Assembly (NCBI RefSeq): GCF_027620315.1
Contig: NZ_JAPNNL010000018.1
Span: 1 to 64,000, forward strand
Direction: 5' to 3'
DNA: 64,000 bases
Origin: Nonomuraea corallina
Lineage (GTDB): Bacteria; Actinomycetota; Actinomycetes; Streptosporangiales; Streptosporangiaceae
Part shown: positions 22,533 to 33,297 of the stretch, piece by piece
Numbering within the stretch: the stretch's first letter is position 1
Layout of the letters: the number at the start of each line of letters is the position of its first letter
Position numbers and translations under genes: made by a program
Notes under the pieces: model-generated
What the model was told of the DNA's origin: nothing
Database searches by the model: none
The model's input: only the letters and a program-made list of their open reading frames with translations

Positions 22533-23027
22533 ATGAATGAGACAGACCTTCATTACCTGCGCAGATGTGTCGACCTCGCGGCCCAGGCCCTCGCCTCGGG
22601 CGACGAACCGTTCGGATCCGTGCTGGTGAGCGGCGACGGCACCGTCCTCGGCGAGGACCACAACCACGTGGTGGAGACCGGCGACCACACCCGCCACCCC
22701 GAGTTCGAACTCGCCCGCTGGGCCGCCGCCCACCTGAGCCCGCAGGAACGGGCGGCGGCCACCGTGTACACCTCCGGCGAGCACTGCCCGATGTGCGCGG
22801 CCGCCCACGGGTGGGTGGGGCTGGGCCGGATCGTGTACGCGTCGTCATCGGAGCAGTTGTCGGCCTGGCTGGGGGAGCTGGGGGTGGCGCCGGCGCCGGT
22901 GCGGGGGCTGGCGATCCGGGAGGTGGTGCCGAGCGCGGCGGTGGAGGGTCCGGCGCCTGAACTGGCCGAACAGGTCAGAGAACTGCACCGCCGGTTCCAC
23001 GAGCGTTATCGCAGTAATGGCAATTAA
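22533..23027 (+). CDS. Nucleoside deaminase (cytidine/deoxycytidylate deaminase fold)
   Basis: 164 residues. Zinc site: HPE at 55-57 (usual HAE) and PCxxC-type HCPMC with Cys85 and Cys88. EPFGSVLVSGDGTVLGEDHNHV is typical of tRNA-adenosine/guanine deaminase-like proteins. It is too divergent to assign guanine, cytosine or tRNA adenosine as substrate. Start ATG 22533; GTG 22524 is an alternative. Divergent from the ABC exporter. Confidence 0.85.
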   Translation: MNETDLHYLRRCVDLAAQALASGDEPFGSVLVSGDGTVLGEDHNHVVETGDHTRHPEFELARWAAAHLSPQERAAATVYTSGEHCPMCAAAHGWVGLGRIVYASSSEQLSAWLGELGVAPAPVRGLAIREVVPSAAVEGPAPELAEQVRELHRRFHERYRSNGN

Positions 23028-23131: not shown

Positions 23132-24358
23132 GTGGCATACCAGTGGGAAGACCCGGCCAGAGAGTGGCCTGAGACTCTCGATGTGGCGGAAATGCTGACG
23201 AACGGGTGGCGGCCGCACCCGTTCCGTCAATTCCTTCTCAAGGCGCACAGCCGTTGCAACCTCGCCTGCGACTACTGCTACGTCTACACGCTCGCCGACC
23301 AGAGCTGGCGATCCCGGCCCATGATCATGGCCCCTGAGCTGGTGGACACCGTCGCCCATCGGATCGCGGAGCACGCGCGGGCCCACCGGCTCGACGCCGT
23401 GCGCCTGATCCTGCACGGCGGCGAGCCCCTGCTGGCGGGCGCCGACTACCTGCGGCAGGCCGTCCGGCTCGTCCGGGACAGGACCGGCCCCGAGGTGCGG
23501 GTCGACGCCGTCGTCCAGACCAACGGCGTGCTCCTGGACAAGGACGTGCTGCGGTCCTTCGCGGCAGAGGACGTGGGCGTGGGGGTGAGCCTGGACGGCA
23601 GCCCCGCTGGAAATGACCGCAACCGCCGCTATGCGGATGGCCGGAGCAGTTATCCGGCGGTCGCGGAAGGGCTTACCCTCCTCATGGAGCCGGAATTCCA
23701 CGACATTTACCACGGCCTGTTGTGCACGGTCGATCTGGCGAACGATCCGGTCGAGACCTATGAGGCGCTGCTGCTCTTCCGTCCACCGGTGATCGATTTT
23801 CTCCTCCCGCACGGCACCTGGGCCACGCCGCCCCCGGGCCGCGTGCCCGATCCCGCGGCGACGCCGTACGGCGACTGGCTCGTGGCCGTCTTCGACCGCT
23901 GGTACGGGGCGAGCGGGGAGACCGTCGTCCGGCTCTTCCAGGAGATCCTCCACCTGCTCCTCGGCCGGGCCTCCGCCAGCGAGTCCGTGGGCCTCACCCC
24001 GTCCACCCTGGTGGTGATCGAAACCGATGGCACGGTGGAGCAGACCGACTCCCTGAAAGCGGTCCGGCACGGCGCGCCGGCGACCGGGCTGAACATCGTC
24101 GACCATCCCTTCGACGACGCGCTGCGGCACCCTGGCCTGGTGGCCCGGCAGCTGGGCTTCGAGGCGCTGAGCGACACGTGCAAGGCCTGCGTCTACAGCC
24201 GCGTGTGCGGGGCCGGCCTCTACACGCACCGTTACCGCCGCGACACCGGCTTCCTGAACCCGTCCGTGTACTGTCCCGACCTCTACCGGCTGATCGATCA
24301 CATCCGTGACCGGCTCGTCAGCGATCTCCGGAGAGCCCGACTGGAAGGACGCCCATGA
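23132..24358 (+). CDS. fxsB: FxsB-family radical SAM/SPASM peptide cyclophane enzyme
   Basis: 408 residues. The radical SAM motif is CNLACDYCYVY (Cys42, Cys46, Cys49), with GGEP at about residues 94-97. A SPASM-like auxiliary-cluster region follows at the C-terminus: Cys350, Cys353 and Cys359 in CKACVYSRVCGAG, plus a later YCPD Cys. FxsB proteins act on FxSxx-COOH precursors and are known to install three-residue cyclophane crosslinks. A matching precursor lies at 28289. Start GTG 23132. The gene overlaps the HExxH gene by ATGA. Confidence 0.93.
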   Translation: MAYQWEDPAREWPETLDVAEMLTNGWRPHPFRQFLLKAHSRCNLACDYCYVYTLADQSWRSRPMIMAPELVDTVAHRIAEHARAHRLDAVRLILHGGEPLLAGADYLRQAVRLVRDRTGPEVRVDAVVQTNGVLLDKDVLRSFAAEDVGVGVSLDGSPAGNDRNRRYADGRSSYPAVAEGLTLLMEPEFHDIYHGLLCTVDLANDPVETYEALLLFRPPVIDFLLPHGTWATPPPGRVPDPAATPYGDWLVAVFDRWYGASGETVVRLFQEILHLLLGRASASESVGLTPSTLVVIETDGTVEQTDSLKAVRHGAPATGLNIVDHPFDDALRHPGLVARQLGFEALSDTCKACVYSRVCGAGLYTHRYRRDTGFLNPSVYCPDLYRLIDHIRDRLVSDLRRARLEGRP

Positions 24359-25608
24359 CTCCGCGGCCCCACTGGTTGCCGGAAGAGATCCTCACCCGGC
24401 TGGCGTCCGGCGGCGGCGGCGCGGAGGCCGCGCGCCATCTCGTGGCCGCCGAGCGCAGCAAGCACCGGCTCCTCGTCCTGGGCGTCGTCCGGCTCGCCGG
24501 CTCCGATCCGGCCGTGGGACGGGCCTACGACCTGCTCGCGTGGCTGGAGAAGAAGGCGCCGCAAGCCGTGGAGAAGGTGATCGGCCATCCGGCGACCGGA
24601 GCGTGGGCGACGCACGTCCTGCGGTCCCGCGCGACGCCGGACCGGTCCGGCGCCGTCCAGCTCGGCGCGCTGGCCGCGGCCGCTGCGGCCCGGGCGGGAC
24701 TCCCGGCGCGGGTCGCGGCGCCCGCGCCGGACGGCCGGATCATGCTGCCGTCCCTGGGCGAGCTCGTGATCGAGGAGCGGGCCGAGGTGATCGACCTGAC
24801 CCTGCGCGAGGACGCGACCATCGAGGCCGGCGGGCGGCGCGTGCGCGTGGGTGACGACGAGGCGCCGGGCTGGCGCCCGCTGAGGAGCGTCTCGGCGGAC
24901 GGCCTCAGCCTGTGCGTGGACGACCTCGACCCGTTCCGGTGGTCGCCCGGCGACGTGCCGGACGGGCGGCTGCCCCCCGCCGAGCTGGACACCTGGCGGG
25001 AGTATCTCCAGATCGCCTGGACAGTCATGCGAGCGCGGCACTGGACGCTCGCCGAGGAGACCGCCGAGATCGTCTCGGTGCTGACCCCCATCACCGGCCC
25101 GGCCTACCGCATGAACAGCGCTACGGCCAGGGACCGGTTCGGCGCCATCGGCATGTCCACGCCGCGGGACTGGCGATGGCTCGCGTACACGTTCGCCCAC
25201 GAGGTCCAGCACGCCAAGCTGGGCGCGGTCCTCGACACGCTGGAGTTGCTGGAGCCCGACGACGGCAGGTACTACGCGCCCTGGCGGCCCGATCCCCGCC
25301 CGCTGGCCGGACTGCTCCAGGGCACGTACGCGCATCTCGGGGTCGCGGGCTTCTGGCGTCGCCAGCGGGCACACGAGACCGGCCTGCAGGCGCACGTCGA
25401 GTTCGCGCACTGGCGGCAGGCCGCGTTCGAGGCGGCGGGGACGCTCCTCGACAGCGGCCGGCTCACCGCGCCCGGCGAGCGGTTCGTGACCGTGATGCGG
25501 CGCACGCTGGCGGCCTGGATGACCGAGAGCGTCCCCCAGGCCGCGCTGGACGCCGCGGCCGAGCAGGCCGTCGCGCACCGGGAGTCCTGGCTGGCCCGCA
25601 ACGCGTGA
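24355..25608 (+). CDS. HExxH-motif RiPP-modifying protein (proposed alpha-ketoglutarate peptide beta-hydroxylase family)
   Basis: 417 residues. HEVQH at 282-286 lies in AYTFAHEVQHAKLG; a downstream HETGLQAHVEFAHW offers further metal ligands. This is the HExxH peptide-modification family found next to FxsB-type radical SAM genes. Members were first taken for proteases and later reported as alpha-ketoglutarate-dependent peptide beta-hydroxylases; which reaction applies here is inference. The first 200 residues are alanine-rich and probably bind the peptide. Translationally coupled to fxsB by ATGA. Confidence 0.88.
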   Translation: MTPRPHWLPEEILTRLASGGGGAEAARHLVAAERSKHRLLVLGVVRLAGSDPAVGRAYDLLAWLEKKAPQAVEKVIGHPATGAWATHVLRSRATPDRSGAVQLGALAAAAAARAGLPARVAAPAPDGRIMLPSLGELVIEERAEVIDLTLREDATIEAGGRRVRVGDDEAPGWRPLRSVSADGLSLCVDDLDPFRWSPGDVPDGRLPPAELDTWREYLQIAWTVMRARHWTLAEETAEIVSVLTPITGPAYRMNSATARDRFGAIGMSTPRDWRWLAYTFAHEVQHAKLGAVLDTLELLEPDDGRYYAPWRPDPRPLAGLLQGTYAHLGVAGFWRRQRAHETGLQAHVEFAHWRQAAFEAAGTLLDSGRLTAPGERFVTVMRRTLAAWMTESVPQAALDAAAEQAVAHRESWLARNA

Positions 25609-25615
25609 TCGGCCG

Positions 25616-28144
25616 TCAGAGGCTGACTGGGTCGAAGTCCCAGCTGAAGCGCCTTTTCTTGGAAGCGTGGACTCTTTCCGGGTGGGTGAGCGGATGGCGT
25701 GAGTAGCGTCGCATCGTGTCCGCGTACAGCGCCTGCGCCTGATCCTCCTTCCCATCCGCGCGCAGGTCGAGCGCGACGTTGGCGGCGGCCGACAGCGTGA
25801 GCAGGTCGTCGGGTCCGTAGAACTCGCGCACCTGCGTCAGCGTCTTCTCGCTGAGGTCGCGGGCCGCCGCGACGTCGCCGAGCGCCGCCAGGTCACCGGA
25901 GAGGTTGATGGCGGCGCCGAACACGTAGCCGTGCTGGGGACCCAGCCTCTCGATCAGGCCTTCGTGCGCCTGCCGGTCGAGATCTCTGGCCCGGATGGCG
26001 TCTCCGCGCAGCTGATAGAGGGAAGCGAGGTTCATCAAGCAGCCGTTGGTGAAAGGGTGCTGGTCGCCGAAGATCGCACGGTAGTGGGAGAGCGCCTGCT
26101 GCGCCAGAGGCATCGCCTCCTCCACCCGGCCGACCTGGCGCAGGGTGTTGCCGAACGCGACCTGCGTGGCCATGGTCTCCGGATTGTCCGGGCCGAAGAG
26201 CTTGTCCAGCCTGAGGTACGTCTCTTCGACGAGTTCCAGGGCGCCTTCCACATCCCCTTTCCTGCGCCGGGCGATGGAGAGGTCGCGAGCCGTCACCAGG
26301 GTGAGCGGGTGCTCGATGCCCAGCTCGTTGATGCCGTGGGCGTAGGCCTGTTCGCCGACGTCGCAGGCCTCCACGTGGTTGCCCGTCAACCGGACACTGC
26401 GCGCCAGCCCGTTCCAGGAACTCTGCACCTCCCACTTGCTGACACCGGTCCTCGCGCTGCTCTGTTCGAGGAAGACCAGTTCGGCGAGTTCCTGGGCGGT
26501 GGCGAAGCGGCTCAGCAGGAGGTTGTCGAGCGCCAGGTTGTTGAGCACGCGCAGGGTGGCGGGGGCGACCGCGCCGAAGACCTCCGTGTGCAGCTCCAGT
26601 GACTGGGTGTCCTGGTCGAACGCCTCCTTGAACAGCCCTCTCGCCCTCAGGTTCGCGGCGAAGGTGAGCTTGATGCGCAGCGTCTCCTCGTGCCTCTCTC
26701 CGAAGACCTCGCGCATGTAGTCGAACGTCTCCTCGTTCAGGGCCCGGGACTCGTCGAAGGCGCCGCTCTGCCACAGGACGTTGCCCAGGTGCCGCCGCAG
26801 GCGCAGGACGTTCTCGTCCTTCTCGCCATAGGTGGCCGTCCAGTGGGCGAGGAATTCCTCGGCGAACGTCCGTGCGGAGGTGTAGTTCGCCACCCGGAAC
26901 AGGTAGCGGATGACGTTGATGGCGAACGCCTGGACCTGGTGATCAGCGCAGCGGGTGATGCCCGCGGGGCGCACATGGGGGATCAGGTCGGCGAAGTGGG
27001 GCCAGTTGGTGGTCTCCTCCGGGTCGGCGGGGGCGCCGCCCGCCAGGAGCTGGTGCACCTCGTGCCTGATGTCCTCGCGCTTCGACGGGTCGATGGAGTC
27101 GCGCAGCAGCGCCTGGACGAGGCGATGGATCTGAACGGTGTCCGCCTCCTGCTCGATCTTCACCAGGGCGAACCGGTTGAGCTCGCCGAACGCCCGAGCC
27201 AGCAGCACGGGGTTGGCCAGGACGGAGCTCAGCTGTTTGACCCCGCTCTTGCTGCCCCGGCGGAAGACGGCGCGCGGGATGGGGTCAGGACCGAAGAAGG
27301 CCAAGCAGCGCAGCAGCAGCGCGGCTTCGGGCAACCTGTGCTCGATCTCGTTCACCGAGAGCTGCCAGGCGGCCGTCATCGACAAGGGGTACTCGGTCGA
27401 TTTGCCCAGGTCCAGCAGTTCACGGGTCTGCAGGGCCAGCTGTTCGACGTATTCCTGCGTGGACATCCCGGTCTCCGTCTGGAGAGCCGCCGCCTGCTCC
27501 AGCGCCAGAGGAAGGTCGCCGAGTTCGTTCGCCAGGTGCTCAGCCTCCTTCCGCGGCACCTCCTTGTGCAGGCGCTTGCGAAGGAACGCGACGCTCTCCT
27601 CGGTGGAGAAGACATCGACCGGCACGGTCTCAGCCACGCTGCTCCATCGGCTGTTCCTCGACGTGATCAGCACATGCCCGGGGCCGCCTTCCGGGATGAA
27701 GTCCCGGATGTCCTCGGGCTCGTCGGCGTTGTCGAAGATGAGCAGCCACCGCTCGATCGGTTCGCCGCGCTGGAGCGCGTCGCGGACACCGGCGGCGGCC
27801 TCCTCGATGCCCACGCTGTTGGCCGAGCGCAGCCTGAGGTCCTCGGCCAGGGCCGCGAGGGTGCTCGGGACGAGCATCGGCTGGTCGGCTGGTACCCACC
27901 AGACGAGGTCGTAGGCGTCCCGATATCGCCAGGCGTACTCGATCGCCAGTTGGGTCTTGCCGACGCCGCCCAGCCCCTGCAACGCCTGGGGCAGGACCGC
28001 CGCTTTGGTGGTGGAGATGATGCTCGCCCGCAATTGATCAAGGAGCTTCTCCCGGCCGGTGAAGTGCTTGTTGCGGCCTGGAATCTTCTTCCCCCAGATA
28101 GTCGGCATCTGGCCCGACGTCTCTCCCACGATGTCCTGCTCCAT
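25616..28144 (-). CDS. fxsT: FxSxx-COOH system NB-ARC/TPR protein (FxsT)
   Basis: 842 residues, a STAND-type ATPase. Walker A GLGGVGKT at 57-64, Walker B LLIFDNAD at about 134-141, GDLPLAL at about 210, then a winged-helix region to about 400. The C-terminal half is a run of tetratricopeptide repeats of the kinesin-light-chain type, with recurring FG--HP-T spacing. The C-terminus carries a WDFDP motif. The family is named from its linkage to FxsA/FxsB, and its role (sensing, regulation or effector control) is unproven. It converges with the HExxH gene (7 bp between stops) and diverges from fxsA. Confidence 0.9.
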   Translation of the reverse strand: MEQDIVGETSGQMPTIWGKKIPGRNKHFTGREKLLDQLRASIISTTKAAVLPQALQGLGGVGKTQLAIEYAWRYRDAYDLVWWVPADQPMLVPSTLAALAEDLRLRSANSVGIEEAAAGVRDALQRGEPIERWLLIFDNADEPEDIRDFIPEGGPGHVLITSRNSRWSSVAETVPVDVFSTEESVAFLRKRLHKEVPRKEAEHLANELGDLPLALEQAAALQTETGMSTQEYVEQLALQTRELLDLGKSTEYPLSMTAAWQLSVNEIEHRLPEAALLLRCLAFFGPDPIPRAVFRRGSKSGVKQLSSVLANPVLLARAFGELNRFALVKIEQEADTVQIHRLVQALLRDSIDPSKREDIRHEVHQLLAGGAPADPEETTNWPHFADLIPHVRPAGITRCADHQVQAFAINVIRYLFRVANYTSARTFAEEFLAHWTATYGEKDENVLRLRRHLGNVLWQSGAFDESRALNEETFDYMREVFGERHEETLRIKLTFAANLRARGLFKEAFDQDTQSLELHTEVFGAVAPATLRVLNNLALDNLLLSRFATAQELAELVFLEQSSARTGVSKWEVQSSWNGLARSVRLTGNHVEACDVGEQAYAHGINELGIEHPLTLVTARDLSIARRRKGDVEGALELVEETYLRLDKLFGPDNPETMATQVAFGNTLRQVGRVEEAMPLAQQALSHYRAIFGDQHPFTNGCLMNLASLYQLRGDAIRARDLDRQAHEGLIERLGPQHGYVFGAAINLSGDLAALGDVAAARDLSEKTLTQVREFYGPDDLLTLSAAANVALDLRADGKEDQAQALYADTMRRYSRHPLTHPERVHASKKRRFSWDFDPVSL

Positions 28145-28191
28145 CGTTCTGTCCCCTCCCGTCCGTCCGATTTTCCCCCGCGTGATTGATT

Positions 28192-28221
28192 TTGGCGATG
28201 GATGGCCGGAGAATTTATATA
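28192..28221 (+). promoter_or_regulatory. Candidate fxsA promoter
   Basis: TTGGCG (28192-28197) and TATATA (28216-28221) with an 18-bp spacer, in the only AT-rich patch of the divergent region. TTTATATAAA is itself palindromic, so fxsT could use it in the other direction. Confidence 0.4.
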
Positions 28222-28252
28222 AAGCACCATCACACGCAAGGAATTTTCGGGT

Positions 28253-28270
28253 GTTACGGGCGGCCGTAAC
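28253..28270. promoter_or_regulatory. Perfect inverted repeat in the fxsA leader
   Basis: GTTACGG (28253-28259) and CCGTAAC (28264-28270) with a 4-base centre, 18 bp before the fxsA ATG. It could be an operator or a leader hairpin just ahead of the ribosome site. Confidence 0.5.
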
Positions 28271-28288
28271 CGAGACCAGGGAGACTGG

Positions 28289-28438
28289 ATGAACGATAGG
28301 TTCACCACCGGGCTGATCGATGTGGGCGATATCGATCTAGAAGCACTCAAGAACCTCGACATACCGGCTTTGAACAGGGTCTGGGAGAGATTGTCCGAGG
28401 GTGGCGGCATCGTTGCCAGCTTCCAGTCGGCCGTCTGA
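28289..28438 (+). CDS. fxsA: FxSxx-COOH precursor peptide (FxsA)
   Basis: A 49-residue peptide starting MNDRFTTGLIDVGDIDLEAL and ending VASFQSAV, so its last five residues are F-Q-S-A-V, an exact F-x-S-x-x-COOH terminus. AGGGAGA at 28278-28284 gives a good ribosome site 4 nt before ATG 28289. The leader is acidic and helical (DIDLEALKNLDIPALNRVWERL), as expected for recognition by a radical SAM enzyme; a GGG at 38-40 separates it from the core. FxsB should crosslink within the FQS core, and the HExxH protein may add a second modification. It is easily missed because of its size and because it lies beyond the divergent fxsT. Confidence 0.93.
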   Translation: MNDRFTTGLIDVGDIDLEALKNLDIPALNRVWERLSEGGGIVASFQSAV

Positions 28439-29091
28439 CCGGTATTACGGGAGTCGGCCGGCGGGCGTGTTCTCATGTGTGCGGGCGGGGTGTGTGATCG
28501 ACCCGATCCGATGCGTGGACAGCTCAGTAGAAGACGTCCGCCCGAATGGCGAGGTCTCGTGGCCGGTGACCGATCAGGCCGGCTGATTCCCCTGTGCGGG
28601 CGGGGTGTGTGACGCCATTCGGTAACGGTGATCCGGAATCTCGGCCGGACTGGGTTTTGGCCGTGAGGGGGCGGTACGATTTCCGGAAAGGGTCTGGGGA
28701 GCGGCGACCTCATAAATCAAGGGAATGCGACCAGGGCACGCGCCCCGTCGGGCTGCCGCCCCCACCCCTGACGACGGTTGGGGTGTTCTCCGGGCGGTGT
28801 GGCGGCGCCCGGAGCCGGGGAGCCGCGCAGACCCGTCGGGTCAGGCGGGGTTCCGGGGCCGGAGGCGGCCTGCCCTACAGGTAAACGGGGATACCTCTGC
28901 CTCTTGCGGGATTTCTCCCCCTGGTGACCGTTTGGTTCCCCTTTGGGAGATGCTTAGCCCTATCCAGACTCCCCATCCGTCGCGTCTTCAGGGACAGGCT
29001 ACGAGGCGTGGCCCTATGCTCTCGTTTCACATGTGTCAAGCCGCCGAACGCGTGTCGGCCGCACCGGTGCATATCGAGAGTCGAGGTGTTC
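28439..29091. other. Non-coding region between fxsA and the MFS gene
   Basis: About 650 bp with no convincing gene. Short open frames lack ribosome sites and have unlikely Cys/Arg-rich composition. It contains the 20-bp direct repeat listed separately. The last 200 bp are less GC-rich and lead into the MFS gene; its promoter should lie here, but I cannot place it. Confidence 0.6.
28478..28612 (+). repeat. 20-bp direct repeat, two copies 115 bp apart
   Basis: TGTGCGGGCGGGGTGTGTGA occurs exactly at 28478-28497 and 28593-28612, downstream of fxsA. Exact repeats of this length are not expected by chance in 650 bp. Role unknown: regulator sites, duplication remnant or recombination scar. Confidence 0.8.
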
Positions 29092-30501
29092 GTGCTGGAA
29101 ATGTGGCGCGCTATGAGACACCTTTTCGCCCAATATCGGCCGTTTCGGTGGCTCTGGTGGGGATCAACCTTCTCCATGCTAGGTGGTCGTGCGCTCAGCG
29201 TGACGTATCCGTTATTGGCGTACACCCTGACGGGGTCGTCGGAGTGGATAGGGTGGGTCGTTTTCGCCTCTACGATGCCGGGGCTGATCTGTTACATCCC
29301 TGCAGGCGTCCTGATCGATCGTATCGGTCCGCGCCGGGTCCTGATGAGCAGCGAGGCGGTCCGTTTCGTCATCATGGGGGCGCTCGTCGTGCTGTTGCTC
29401 TCGGACCGGTTGCGCGTGGAGTGGGTGGTGGTTTTCGCGCTGGTCGAAGGCGGTCTGGCCGTCACGTCGTCGGTCGCCGAGTCGGCACTGATCCCGAGGG
29501 TGGTCCGGGATGACGACCTCGACGCGGCCCTGGCCATGCATGAGACGAGCACGCACGGGGCCGTCCTGGTGGGACGGCAGCTTGGTGGCCTTCTTTACGG
29601 ATTGGTCCCTTTTATCCCTTTCATGATCAACGGGCTCATGTTTGCGGGCTCGGCTCTTTCCTACCGCACTCTACCGCGCGAGGTTCCTGACGCCCGGCGG
29701 CTGCAGGATGTCAGTTTGCGTATCGAGCTGCGAGCCGGTTTTGCCGCGCTATGGGGTAATCGTTTTCTCCGTTTGGCGACTTTCATCGTTGCTTGTACCA
29801 ATCTCATGGTTCAATGCCTGATTGTCGTTTTCTTGACGATTGCTACAAAAGATGACTTGAGTCCCGTTTGGGTAGGTAGTTTCCTTGCCGCATCCGGCGT
29901 CGGAGGGGTCGTCGGCGGACTCCTGTGGCCCAGGCGCGACCGCATCTCGACGCGGATAGAGAACGGCACGGCCCACAACAGGCTGGCGCGCCGCCTCGTG
30001 GAGTGGATGGGGCTGGCGCGACGACGCTCGATCATGCTGGTACACGTCTGGGCGTGCACCGCCGCCATCGTGCTGATCCTGGCGTTCGGGCAGTTGGCGC
30101 CGTCCTTCTTCGGGGCGTTGCTGGTCATCGGTCTGGCGGGCGGGCTCAGTAACGTCACCTTGCGGAGCGCTTGGAGCCGGGTTCCCGACGACCTGCGGGG
30201 ACGGGTGGTGAGCGTCTCCCGCTTCGTCAGCTACAGCGCCGTCGCCATCGGCCCGCTCATCGGCAGTCTCCTCGTCACCTGGGGGGACACGAAGGGGGCG
30301 ACGTTGTTCCTGTTCGGGTCCATGGCCCTGCTGACGCTGACAACCACCCTGGTCCATCTCAGAAAGGGACTCACGCGCGTCTCGATCCCGGTCGGCGCGG
30401 ATCCGGTGGCTCCCTCGGTGACCGCCTCTCCTGCGCCGGAGCCGGTTCGAGAGGAGCAGCCTTCCGTGCCGGAGCGTGCGTTACCGGCTGTGACGGGGTG
30501 A
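29092..30501 (+). CDS. MFS transporter (drug-efflux-like)
   Basis: About 469 residues with 10-12 membrane segments. Family features: QYRPFRWLWWGSTFSMLG at the N-terminus, DRIGPRRVLMSSE at about 65-77 (the MFS loop-2 motif) and VPDDLRGRVVS in the second half. It ends in a ~45-residue Pro/Glu-rich cytoplasmic tail. GTG 29092 lies 5 nt after GAGG; ATG 29101 and GTG 29086 are alternatives. Codons ending in T are frequent around 29580-29870, unlike its neighbours, suggesting acquisition. It may export the Fxs product, an inference from position only. The KAP/NACHT gene follows 9 bp downstream. Confidence 0.88.
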   Translation: MLEMWRAMRHLFAQYRPFRWLWWGSTFSMLGGRALSVTYPLLAYTLTGSSEWIGWVVFASTMPGLICYIPAGVLIDRIGPRRVLMSSEAVRFVIMGALVVLLLSDRLRVEWVVVFALVEGGLAVTSSVAESALIPRVVRDDDLDAALAMHETSTHGAVLVGRQLGGLLYGLVPFIPFMINGLMFAGSALSYRTLPREVPDARRLQDVSLRIELRAGFAALWGNRFLRLATFIVACTNLMVQCLIVVFLTIATKDDLSPVWVGSFLAASGVGGVVGGLLWPRRDRISTRIENGTAHNRLARRLVEWMGLARRRSIMLVHVWACTAAIVLILAFGQLAPSFFGALLVIGLAGGLSNVTLRSAWSRVPDDLRGRVVSVSRFVSYSAVAIGPLIGSLLVTWGDTKGATLFLFGSMALLTLTTTLVHLRKGLTRVSIPVGADPVAPSVTASPAPEPVREEQPSVPERALPAVTG

Positions 30502-30510
30502 AATCGAGGC

Positions 30511-33297
30511 ATGGCAGGCAGACCTTGGGGACGGGCGCTGTCGGTGGTGCTGCTCGTGCTCGTCTGGGTGCCGGCCGGCGCGCCGGTGGTGCCGGGCCCG
30601 CAGTTCCTCGACCGCGACCGGCTCGTCATCCGTCTGGACCGTCTCACCCCGGCCGGCACGTGGCGCGTGGAGATCGGCAATCCGGGGCCGGCGGCAGAGG
30701 CCCAGGTCTGGCTGATCGGCGGGGTCTCCGACGTGCTGGCCGTCCGGGGCGGCGGGCGGATCCGGCTCGCGGCCGCGGGCAAGGGCACGGTGCTCCTGGT
30801 CCCGGGCCCGCGGCGGCGGGCCGCGACCGGTCAGCTCGTGCTCATCTCGCAGGCCGGTATCGACCGGCGTCCCGTGGCCGTCACCCCTGCGCCGTCACCG
30901 CTGGAACGTTACTGGCCCGGCCTGCTGGCGGCCGTCTCAGTGATCTTGCTGGCGACGGTGTGGCTGCTGCGGCGGCGACGGCGGAAGCAGGCGGCGATCG
31001 GGGAGACGACTCCCGCGCAGGGCCGGGCCGGGCCGGGCGAGTCCCGTGGGTTCACCCATAGCGACGAGCCGGTCAAAGAGGACGCGCTCAACAGACGCGA
31101 GTACGCGGAGCATCTCGCCGAGCTGGCCCGGTCCGCGACCCCGCCCATGGTCATCGGCGTGTTCGGTGAATGGGGGAGCGGCAAGACCTCGATGCTCCTG
31201 CAGGTTCGAGCGCTGCTGGAGGACGATCCCGAGTGCGCGCTGGCGTGGTTCGACCCGTGGCGTCACCAGTACGACGAGAATCCGGTGCTGCCCCTGCTCC
31301 ATGCCATCGTCACCGATCTCGAACTGGAGGGCAGGGAGAACGTCATCAGGGCGCTGCGCACCGTCTCCCAGGTTCTGGGCTCCCTCGTCCTCTCGTCCAC
31401 CGTCAAGATCAACCTGTCCGACGTCCAGGGCGCGCTGAAGGCGTACGACGAGGAGAACTTCCGCCTCCGGTCCGAACGCACCCGCCTGAACGACCACCTG
31501 GGCAGGCTGGTCGCGACGGCCCTGCGCGAACGGAACAGGAGCCGCCTGGTGGTGTTCATCGACGACCTGGACCGTTGCCACGTCGACCAGATCACCGCCC
31601 TGCTGGAGGCCCTGAAGCTGCACTTCAACCGCGACAACTGCGTCTTCGTGCTCGGTGTCGCCAAGGCGCCGCTGGTGGCGGCGCTGAAGGAGAAGTACCA
31701 GGACCCGCTGGGCGAGTACCTGGACAAGATCGTCCAGTTTCCCTTCGAGATGCCCAGGCTCTCGGCGGACGCCTTCGCCTCCTATCTGGACGGGCTGCTC
31801 AACCACGACATCCAGGCCGCGAAGAGCCTGCTCGCCTGCGGATTACGGGCCAACCCACGGGCCATCAAGCGTTTCGTCAACGTCCTCGTCCTGCAGGACC
31901 GGGTGGCGCGGGCGAGGAGGCTCGACCCGTACGAGGTCCGCGTCCTCGCGGCGGTGCTCCTGGTCAGGGACGGCGACGCGGACTTCTACGCCCGGCTCAT
32001 GAGCGATCCGACCCTGCTCAAACGGGTCGCCGAGGACCTGGAGACGGCCGGGGAGGAACAGCGGCCCGACTGGCCCGCGCTGCCGCTGCGGGTCGTGGGC
32101 GAGCTCGCCGCGTCCCGCACCAGCGTGCCGGACAGCGTCAGCGCCTACATCGACCTGGTCCGGGAGTCGCCGGCACCGCAGTCGGGCGATCTGGTGGACC
32201 CCGTCCCGCCGCGGGAACAGCCCCAGGTCTCGGAGGACACCGTGCCCGAGGAGAGCCGGTTGAGCCGGGACGCCCTGGACGACGCCCTAACCACGCTGGC
32301 CGAGCGGGTGCGCCGGCGCGCGGGCGGGGTCGCGGGCGAGGAACGAGCGCTCCTGACGCCGCTGGTCCGCTTCCCCGAGGAAACGGAGGCCCGCCCCGCC
32401 CCGATCGAGGACATCCTGGCCCAGGGGACGAGGCTGCTGATCAGCGGCAGGCAGGGCGCGGGCAAGTCCGTGCTCGCCGCCCGGCTGGCGCGGCGGCGCA
32501 ACGAGGCAGGTGACCCTGGTGCGGGCGTGGCGGTCCTGCTGCCGTTCCGGGCGCTCAGGTCGGACATCGCGGAGTTCGACCGGAGGCTGACGCACGCGCT
32601 GGTGGGCGAGTACCAGATTCCGATCGCGGACGCGAACGCGGTCGTCCAGCGGGGGTCTCTGGTCCTCGTCCTCGACGGGCTGGAGGAGATCGGCGACGCG
32701 GACCGGGAGGCCATCGTGACGCGGCTGGTGCGCTGGGCCGACCTGGCCGGGGCCGGGGTCATCATGACGGACCGGCGACCGGCGCGGGCCCGTCCGGGCT
32801 TCCGGGTCCTCACGGTGGAGGGCGTGGTGCCGGAGGAGGGCCGCCACTTGCTGCACCGCGTGCTCGGCGAGCACGGCGCCGACCCGGGGCGGCTGCTGAA
32901 CTTGACCGACGCCCTGCTCGGCTCGCCCCAGCTGCTCTCCGCGCTGACCGGCGATCCGGCCTGGATCGACGACCTGCCCGATCGGCCGGTGGACTTCCTG
33001 CCGTGGTTCGCCGGCTGGGCCACCCGCAGGACGGCCGAGGCCGGGTTCGGCGCGGACGCGGTGGCCACGGCGCTCTCGGGCGTCGCGGGGTTGCTCGCCG
33101 AGACCGGGCAGGAGATCTTCAGCAGCGACGACCCGGACGTCAGGACCGTGTTCCGCCGGTCCGGGATCAAGGGCATGGAGGTGCCGAGCCTGCTCCATGC
33201 CGCCGTGGTGGCGGGCCTGCTCCGGCAGGCGGGCCCGCAGGCCTACCACTTCGTGCATCCGCGTCTGGTGGACCGGCTGGCGAGGTCGGAGGACTGA
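30511..33297 (+). CDS. Membrane-anchored double NTPase: KAP P-loop domain plus NACHT-like domain
   Basis: 928 residues. A signal-like hydrophobic segment (about 8-25), an extracytoplasmic-looking beta-rich stretch (about 30-130), a transmembrane helix at about 136-155 followed by RRRRRK, then a KAP-type NTPase: Walker A GEWGSGKT at 219-226, FDPWRHQ, Walker B FIDDLDR ending at Arg355, and ANPRAIKRFVN. A linker (about 545-600) leads to a second P-loop, GRQGAGKS ending at Ser653, with Walker B LVLDGLEEI (Asp722), the NACHT pattern. The topology would place both NTPases inside the cell. KAP and NACHT proteins are linked to membrane signalling and immunity. Probably co-transcribed with the MFS gene. 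Confidence 0.85.
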   Translation: MAGRPWGRALSVVLLVLVWVPAGAPVVPGPQFLDRDRLVIRLDRLTPAGTWRVEIGNPGPAAEAQVWLIGGVSDVLAVRGGGRIRLAAAGKGTVLLVPGPRRRAATGQLVLISQAGIDRRPVAVTPAPSPLERYWPGLLAAVSVILLATVWLLRRRRRKQAAIGETTPAQGRAGPGESRGFTHSDEPVKEDALNRREYAEHLAELARSATPPMVIGVFGEWGSGKTSMLLQVRALLEDDPECALAWFDPWRHQYDENPVLPLLHAIVTDLELEGRENVIRALRTVSQVLGSLVLSSTVKINLSDVQGALKAYDEENFRLRSERTRLNDHLGRLVATALRERNRSRLVVFIDDLDRCHVDQITALLEALKLHFNRDNCVFVLGVAKAPLVAALKEKYQDPLGEYLDKIVQFPFEMPRLSADAFASYLDGLLNHDIQAAKSLLACGLRANPRAIKRFVNVLVLQDRVARARRLDPYEVRVLAAVLLVRDGDADFYARLMSDPTLLKRVAEDLETAGEEQRPDWPALPLRVVGELAASRTSVPDSVSAYIDLVRESPAPQSGDLVDPVPPREQPQVSEDTVPEESRLSRDALDDALTTLAERVRRRAGGVAGEERALLTPLVRFPEETEARPAPIEDILAQGTRLLISGRQGAGKSVLAARLARRRNEAGDPGAGVAVLLPFRALRSDIAEFDRRLTHALVGEYQIPIADANAVVQRGSLVLVLDGLEEIGDADREAIVTRLVRWADLAGAGVIMTDRRPARARPGFRVLTVEGVVPEEGRHLLHRVLGEHGADPGRLLNLTDALLGSPQLLSALTGDPAWIDDLPDRPVDFLPWFAGWATRRTAEAGFGADAVATALSGVAGLLAETGQEIFSSDDPDVRTVFRRSGIKGMEVPSLLHAAVVAGLLRQAGPQAYHFVHPRLVDRLARSED

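What the first reader, a model, noticed from the sequence alone, without database searches (positions are those of the whole stretch)
28289..28438. Uncalled 49-residue FxSxx-COOH precursor peptide
The peptide ends F-Q-S-A-V exactly at its stop codon, has a good ribosome site, and lies 2.7 kb from an HExxH modifying enzyme, 3.9 kb from an FxsB-type radical SAM gene, and next to FxsT. It is the substrate that makes the locus a complete triceptide/cyclophane RiPP pathway. The core FQSAV is a specific prediction for the crosslinked product.
Basis: partly seen in the sequence, partly recalled or inferred. Interest (0 to 1): 0.85.

Follow-up and report, generated by a model that had tools for sequence, protein, structure and literature searches.

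The report
Precursor peptide of a crosslinking pathway
A tiny, easily overlooked gene in a Nonomuraea bacterium encodes the raw peptide for a known kind of enzyme pathway that is expected to stitch a Phe ring to a nearby Ser; the gene is real and conserved, but the kind of system is already known.

Summary
Window 28289-28438 (+) encodes 49 residues ending F-Q-S-A-V at the stop, with GGGAG five bases before the ATG. It matches NCBIfam TIGR04268 (FxSxx-COOH cyclophane RiPP) at 21 bits, below the curated 28. Other evidence lifts it well above chance: it scores best of 436 window ORFs on a profile built without its clade (30.2 bits; best of 1869 scored shuffles 10.9); five Nonomuraea loci carry it in the same place; dN/dS is 0.13 against the nearest relative; in 54 genomes of the genus 31 of 32 profile hits lie within 8.1 kb of FxsB. 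FxsB, the HExxH hydroxylase homologue and FxsT pass curated cut-offs. Best reading: FxsB links Phe45 to Ser47, as reported for MscB; FxsH may then hydroxylate. The role is unproven; STAND/KAP NTPase neighbours point to a conflict-system signal or toxin. New member of a known kind. Side finding: a conserved inverted repeat upstream (28254-28269).

The parts
28289..28438 (+). FxsA-type precursor peptide, 49 aa; leader about residues 1-42 (boundary is a guess), crosslink motif F45-Q46-S47
28279..28283 (+). Shine-Dalgarno GGGAG, 5 nt before the ATG
   Evidence: sequence
28254..28269 (.). Inverted repeat TTACGG-GCGG-CCGTAA, conserved upstream of close-relative precursors; only site of the pattern TTACGGNCGNCCGTAA in the own genome; candidate operator
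23132..24358 (+). FxsB-family cyclophane-forming radical SAM/SPASM maturase (482 bits, cut-off 370); only match at E<=1e-20 in the genome
24355..25608 (+). FxsH: discrete aKG-HExxH-type peptide beta-hydroxylase homologue (150.8 bits, cut-off 40), HEVQH at residues 282-286; overlaps the end of the FxsB gene by 4 nt
25616..28144 (-). FxsT: NB-ARC/TPR STAND-type protein (NF040586, 925.6 bits, cut-off 300), divergent from the precursor
29101..30501 (+). MFS transporter downstream of the precursor; start not settled (frame open from 28924; families were searched from 29119); homologues downstream in L011, L012, L014
30511..33297 (+). KAP NTPase plus NACHT protein, membrane anchor inferred by eye; homologues downstream in L010, L012, L014; possible member of the wider system

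Best explanation
The ORF is the FxsA-type precursor of an FxsB triceptide (three-residue cyclophane RiPP) pathway. Its N-terminal part (LIDVGDIDLEALKNLDIPALNRVW) serves as the leader that FxsB recognises. FxsB (23132) uses its radical SAM cluster to activate the C-beta of Ser47 and joins that carbon to C4 of Phe45, giving a strained F-Q-S cyclophane near the C-terminus (loss of 2 Da). FxsH (24355) may then beta-hydroxylate a residue of the crosslinked core (+16 Da). The mature C-terminal peptide, after cleavage by an unidentified protease, is either exported by the MFS or kept in the cell as a signal or toxin tied to the divergent STAND protein FxsT. Shown here: the ORF, its conservation, its linkage, and enzyme motifs by sequence. 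Inferred from relatives: the crosslink. Guesses: leader recognition, hydroxylation and its site, cleavage, export and biological role.
For: TIGR04268 match over profile 1-44/44 to the last residue, E 2.9e-4; 6 of 6 clade members match at E up to 1, best E 1e-6. A profile of 42 precursors outside the clade gives 30.2 bits; best of 1869 scored shuffles 10.9; top of 436 window ORFs, next 7.4. Orthologues in 5 Nonomuraea loci at the same place, F45 and S47 invariant. dN/dS 0.13 against L010, with 16 of 28 changes at third codon positions. 42 of 46 loci (45 relatives plus window) hold a precursor by the profile. 31 of 32 hits in the genus lie within 8.1 kb of FxsB. FxsB, HExxH and FxsT over curated cut-offs. 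FxsB aligns with the ChlB radical SAM domain over residues 33-399, E 1.1e-83, with the CxxxCxxC and four C-terminal cysteines matched. MscB (IPR026335) makes a C4(Phe)-Cbeta(Ser) bond (review PMC11002830, passages); that IPR026335 is the FxsB family is recalled.
Against: The score is 7 bits under the curated cut-off, and in a whole-genome scan the model separates it poorly from noise (E 0.011 against 0.073; 8 of 14 control genomes ring at E<=1). dN/dS runs up to 0.81 among the 15 pairs of the clade (L012-L014), and dS is high in most pairs, so selection is clearest for the nearest pair. 4 of 46 loci have no precursor by the profile, and 26 of 54 genus genomes have no hit to the clade profile at E<=0.01, with candidates capped at 129 in many. 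No leader protease was found. The core has no Asp or His, the residues ChlH hydroxylates, so the hydroxylation step is weakly grounded. FxsT, on the other strand, lies between precursor and FxsB. The 42 outside members of the profile were recruited in a search begun with clade members among its seeds, so the leave-clade-out test is not fully independent.
Confidence: 0.9

Rival explanations
1. The peptide is a crosslinked internal signal of an NTPase-based conflict (immunity-like) system: FxsT, and in relatives nSTAND1-TPR and KAP-NACHT proteins, sense or are triggered by the mature FxS cyclophane, rather than the locus making a secreted natural product. The chemistry is the same as in the best explanation; only the role differs.
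For: FxsT is an NB-ARC/TPR protein whose divergent start is 144 bp from the precursor. Downstream of the precursor lie nSTAND1-TPR proteins in L010, L012, L014 and KAP proteins in window, L010, L012, L014. The window's KAP protein has distant matches to QatA and PifA models (QatA 130 bits in NCBIfam, far under its cut-off of 600). Kaur et al. 2020 (PMC7159879, section 24 and passages) predicted a peptide toxin or signal amplifying such systems.
Against: No test of function was found in the listings seen. An MFS transporter occurs in 4 of 6 (window, L011, L012, L014). The KAP protein is not found in the stretches held of L011 and L013, and no NTPase other than FxsT was recognised by eye among their downstream ORFs, which were not searched by Pfam. 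FxsT gives no PADLOC match.
Confidence: 0.4
2. The peptide is a decayed or orphan FxsA: a coding gene still recognisable but no longer a working substrate.
For: Score below the family cut-off; FxsT on the other strand separates precursor and maturase.
Against: dN/dS 0.13-0.41 against five relatives, invariant F45 and S47, good ribosome site, FxsB intact.
Confidence: 0.04
3. Chance ORF with a chance FxSxx end.
For: 20 of 5947 ORFs of 25-300 aa end this way, 9 of them not precursors by the profile.
Against: Orthologues at the same place, selection pattern, profile score and linkage.
Confidence: 0.01

Closest known systems
FxSxx-COOH precursors (NCBIfam TIGR04268) with FxsB (TIGR04269)
   Same: Leader, C-terminal FxSxx at the stop, FxsB, HExxH protein and FxsT in the same neighbourhood
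   Different: 21 bits, below the 28-bit cut-off; precursor divergent from FxsT, whereas in 16 of the 48 profile hits it was classed as just upstream of FxsB
Triceptides; MscB (IPR026335), C4(Phe)-Cbeta(Ser) crosslink
   Same: F-x-S motif and FxsB-type enzyme expected to make the same bond
   Different: Product here not made or measured; residues Q, A, V are its own
ChlB/ChlH (fused rSAM and aKG-HExxH, Chlorogloeopsis; PDB 9gm3, 8s5f)
   Same: FxsB aligns with ChlB at E 1.1e-83; FxsH shares HExxH and PWRxDxRP with ChlH
   Different: Two separate genes here; core lacks the Asp/His that ChlH hydroxylates; ChlH match is weak (E 4.9e-4)
FxSxx-type peptide-processing modules of NTPase conflict systems (Kaur et al. 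2020)
   Same: Small FxSxx peptide, rSAM-SPASM, zincin-like protein, AP-ATPase with TPRs
   Different: No vWA/VMAP component among the seven window proteins searched; the rest of the window was not searched for one

Membership tests
FxSxx-COOH precursor (TIGR04268 type) | F-x-S-x-x exactly at the C-terminus | tested here: met
   FQSAV then TGA
FxSxx-COOH precursor (TIGR04268 type) | Homologous leader and full-length profile match | tested here: met
   Profile 1-44/44, E 2.9e-4; leave-clade-out profile 30.2 bits
FxSxx-COOH precursor (TIGR04268 type) | NCBI's curated score cut-off of 28 bits (an annotation threshold, not a biological feature) | tested here: not met
   21 bits; so it is FxSxx-type by homology and context, not a TIGR04268 member by NCBI's naming rule
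FxSxx-COOH precursor (TIGR04268 type) | Encoded near an FxsB maturase | tested here: met
   FxsB 482 bits, cut-off 370, 3.9 kb away; 31 of 32 hits in the genus linked
Triceptide (three-residue cyclophane RiPP) | C-C bond between aromatic residue i and C-beta of residue i+2 | not testable with these tools
   Needs mass spectrometry or NMR
FxsB (TIGR04269) | Curated score and the cysteine motifs of the radical SAM and SPASM parts | tested here: met
   alignment to ChlB
aKG-HExxH peptide beta-hydroxylase (TIGR04267) | Curated score and intact HExxH | tested here: met
   150.8 bits, cut-off 40; HEVQH, and HExxH in 32 of 32 aligned, window included
aKG-HExxH peptide beta-hydroxylase (TIGR04267) | Hydroxylase activity on the precursor | not testable with these tools
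   Enzyme assay needed
FxsT (NF040586) | Curated score | tested here: met
   925.6 bits, cut-off 300

The most novel reading that the evidence does not exclude
The crosslinked F-Q-S peptide is an endogenous, genetically encoded elicitor read by the divergent STAND protein FxsT, with nSTAND1-TPR and KAP-NACHT proteins as further arms and the conserved inverted repeat controlling both divergent genes: a RiPP used as an intracellular immunity signal rather than as a natural product.
Probability: 0.18. Interest if true: 0.75.

Novelty: new member of a known kind. Interest (0 to 1): 0.32.

Why it matters
It gives a concrete substrate-enzyme pair (49-aa peptide, single FxsB, separate HExxH enzyme) in which crosslinking and hydroxylation can be tested one at a time, since the two enzymes are not fused. 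The neighbours allow a direct test of the prediction that FxSxx peptides serve NTPase conflict systems. As chemistry it is expected.

Tried and rejected
Chance ORF: rejected on conservation and linkage. A second precursor: none found between 15 and 40 kb of the window by the profile, nor in the genome by the clade profile at E<=0.01; TIGR04268 gave ten weaker places at E 0.07-0.98, not followed up. The upstream inverted repeat as an RNA hairpin: it forms in the best structure of only 3 of 6 sequences, z-scores -2.2 to +1.1; several more divergent Nonomuraea precursors keep mainly its right half (by eye), so a DNA site is preferred. A sigma-70-type promoter before the precursor: none by consensus scan. 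A link between HExxH presence and the core: five loci where no HExxH protein was found (L018-L021, L041) have F[DE]N cores, four of the five with a tail, but they look like one lineage, and short or other loci without HExxH (L034, L039) have FxS cores, so nothing is claimed. PADLOC gave no match for the peptide, HExxH, FxsT, deaminase or MFS; I read the viperin matches of FxsB as generic radical SAM similarity. Papers: the three papers listed for FxsB are unrelated; in the listings for FxSxx, triceptides, MscB and HExxH and for radical SAM with STAND/anti-phage (one paper, not opened) I saw none that tests FxsT or FxSxx peptide function. Only open-licence PMC papers are held; three papers were opened, in passages or one section.

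Full report
WHAT IS THERE. Window 28289-28438 (+) is an ATG-to-TGA frame of 49 residues, MNDRFTTGLIDVGDIDLEALKNLDIPALNRVWERLSEGGGIVASFQSAV, with GGGAG five bases before the ATG. On the minus strand a 348-aa open frame (27667-28713) overlaps it; it lies across FxsT in another frame and is taken for a shadow frame. Upstream, 144 bp away and divergent, starts FxsT (25616-28144, -). FxsT converges on FxsH (24355-25608, +), which overlaps the FxsB gene (23132-24358, +) by four bases. Downstream on the same strand are an MFS transporter and a KAP/NACHT protein.

IS IT MORE THAN CHANCE. The motif alone is not: 20 of 5947 ORFs of 25-300 aa end FxSxx, of which 11 are precursors by my profile and 9 are not. 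The family model alone is only suggestive: 21 bits against a curated 28; in the own genome E 0.011 against 0.073 for the next place, and at E<=1 it rings in 8 of 14 control genomes, none over the cut-off. Four further lines decide it. First, the same peptide lies in the same place in five Nonomuraea loci, L010-L014, with 45-78% identity and invariant F45 and S47. Second, codon changes fit a protein: window against L010 has 7, 5 and 16 differences at codon positions 1, 2 and 3, dN/dS 0.13; against the other four it is 0.28-0.41; over all 15 pairs it reaches 0.81, with high dS in most. Third, a profile of 42 precursors from outside this clade gives the peptide 30.2 bits, the best of 436 window ORFs; the next has 7.4, and the best of 1869 scored shuffles (2000 made) has 10.9. 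The profile's members were recruited with clade members among the first seeds, so this test is strong but not fully independent. Fourth, in 54 genomes of the genus (unnamed; Nonomuraea by the contigs they share with named loci) 31 of 32 hits to the clade profile lie within 8.1 kb of an FxsB hit; the exception, G053:C472, is on a contig without one. 28 of the 54 have such a hit; the first look was capped at 129 scored candidates in many, so the other 26 are not proven to lack one.

THE ENZYMES. NCBIfam names FxsB (482 bits, cut-off 370), aKG-HExxH peptide beta-hydroxylase (150.8, cut-off 40) and FxSxx TPR protein (925.6, cut-off 300). The genome has one FxsB match at E<=1e-20; 49 of 54 genomes of the genus have at least one. 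FxsB aligns with the ChlB radical SAM domain (PDB 9gm3) over residues 33-399, E 1.1e-83, with the CxxxCxxC and four C-terminal cysteines matched. The HExxH protein aligns with PDB 22nu (E 2.4e-46) and weakly with ChlH (8s5f, E 4.9e-4), sharing HExxH and a PWRxDxRP motif. HExxH is intact in 32 of 32 aligned, the window's included.

THE FAMILY AT LARGE. Of 46 loci (45 relatives plus window) 42 hold at least one precursor by the profile, 48 in all. By a simple rule 18 are divergent from FxsT, 16 just upstream of FxsB and 14 other; the others include L012, which by eye is also divergent from FxsT because its FxsT frame was called too long. Cores vary: FQSAV, FSSAL, FTSVI, HQSSV, FDNST, FENDK, FQAYI. 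FxSxx-COOH is thus one subset of a wider set. L030, L033, L035 and L046 have none that the profile finds; the L035 hit sits at E 0.01 and was not counted.

MECHANISM. By analogy with MscB, which joins C4 of Phe to C-beta of Ser (review PMC11002830, passages read; that IPR026335 is the FxsB family is recalled), FxsB should crosslink Phe45 and Ser47. Whether FxsH then hydroxylates is open: ChlH acts on Asp and His after cyclophane formation (as told in PMC12636437, passages), and this core has neither. Other HExxH enzymes hydroxylate Gln and cut backbones (same passages), so Gln46 is one possible target and cleavage is not excluded. No dedicated leader protease was identified among the seven proteins searched.

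ROLE. Kaur et al. 2020 (PMC7159879, section 24 and passages) tie FxSxx peptides to NTPase conflict systems and predict a peptide toxin or signal; they call the HExxH protein a peptidase. The close relatives support the NTPase link. Downstream of the precursor, L010, L012 and L014 carry nSTAND1-TPR proteins, and the same three carry relatives of the window's KAP protein (77, 56 and 52% identity over the aligned parts). MFS relatives occur in L011, L012 and L014. By tblastn L011 has the MFS but not the KAP protein and L013 has neither; no nSTAND1 protein was recognised by eye among their listed ORFs, which were not searched by Pfam. Export as a natural product and use as an internal signal both remain open.

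SIDE FINDING. Between FxsT and the precursor is TTACGG-GCGG-CCGTAA (28254-28269), the only site of the pattern TTACGGNCGNCCGTAA in the 7.56-Mb genome. The two arms are exact upstream of the precursor in L010, L012, L014 and G019 (locus L091) and have one change in L011 and L013; in G023 (L093) the spacer is longer, and G046 (L092) lacks it. In 54 genomes the pattern TTNCGGGYGRCCGTAA hit 9 places in 8 genomes; 6 of the 9 are just before such precursors by their coordinates, and 3 (G034, G047:C5, G053) are elsewhere. The control, the pattern read backwards, hit 7 places in 6 genomes, so the sequence as such is not rare; the shared position is the evidence. RNA folding gives little support. It looks like an operator shared by the divergent genes.

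VERDICT. It is a new member of a known kind; its main use is as a clean substrate for testing the chemistry and the conflict-system idea.

Noticed in passing
window 28254-28269: Inverted repeat TTACGG-N4-CCGTAA between the divergent FxsT and precursor genes, conserved in place in close relatives; candidate operator. A backwards control pattern hit 7 places in 54 genomes against 9 for the pattern.
   Followed up: partly
window 30511-33297: One protein with a KAP NTPase (195-459) and a NACHT domain (642-757), distantly similar to QatA/PifA models; relatives lie downstream of the precursor in L010, L012, L014.
   Followed up: partly
L010 14667-18957, L012 15533-17458, L014 15576-17477: nSTAND1-TPR proteins (and in L010 an extra AAA/TPR protein) lie just downstream of the precursor in three relatives; in the window the MFS gene follows instead.
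   Followed up: partly
window 22533-23027: TadA-like deaminase next to FxsB; relatives upstream of FxsB in L010, L011, L013.
   Followed up: no
L018-L021, L041: Loci with FxsB and FxsT where no HExxH protein was found have F[DE]N cores, in four of five followed by a tail, instead of FxSxx ends; probably one lineage.
   Followed up: no
L025, L026, L029, L032, L034, L037: Two precursor-like ORFs per locus.
   Followed up: no
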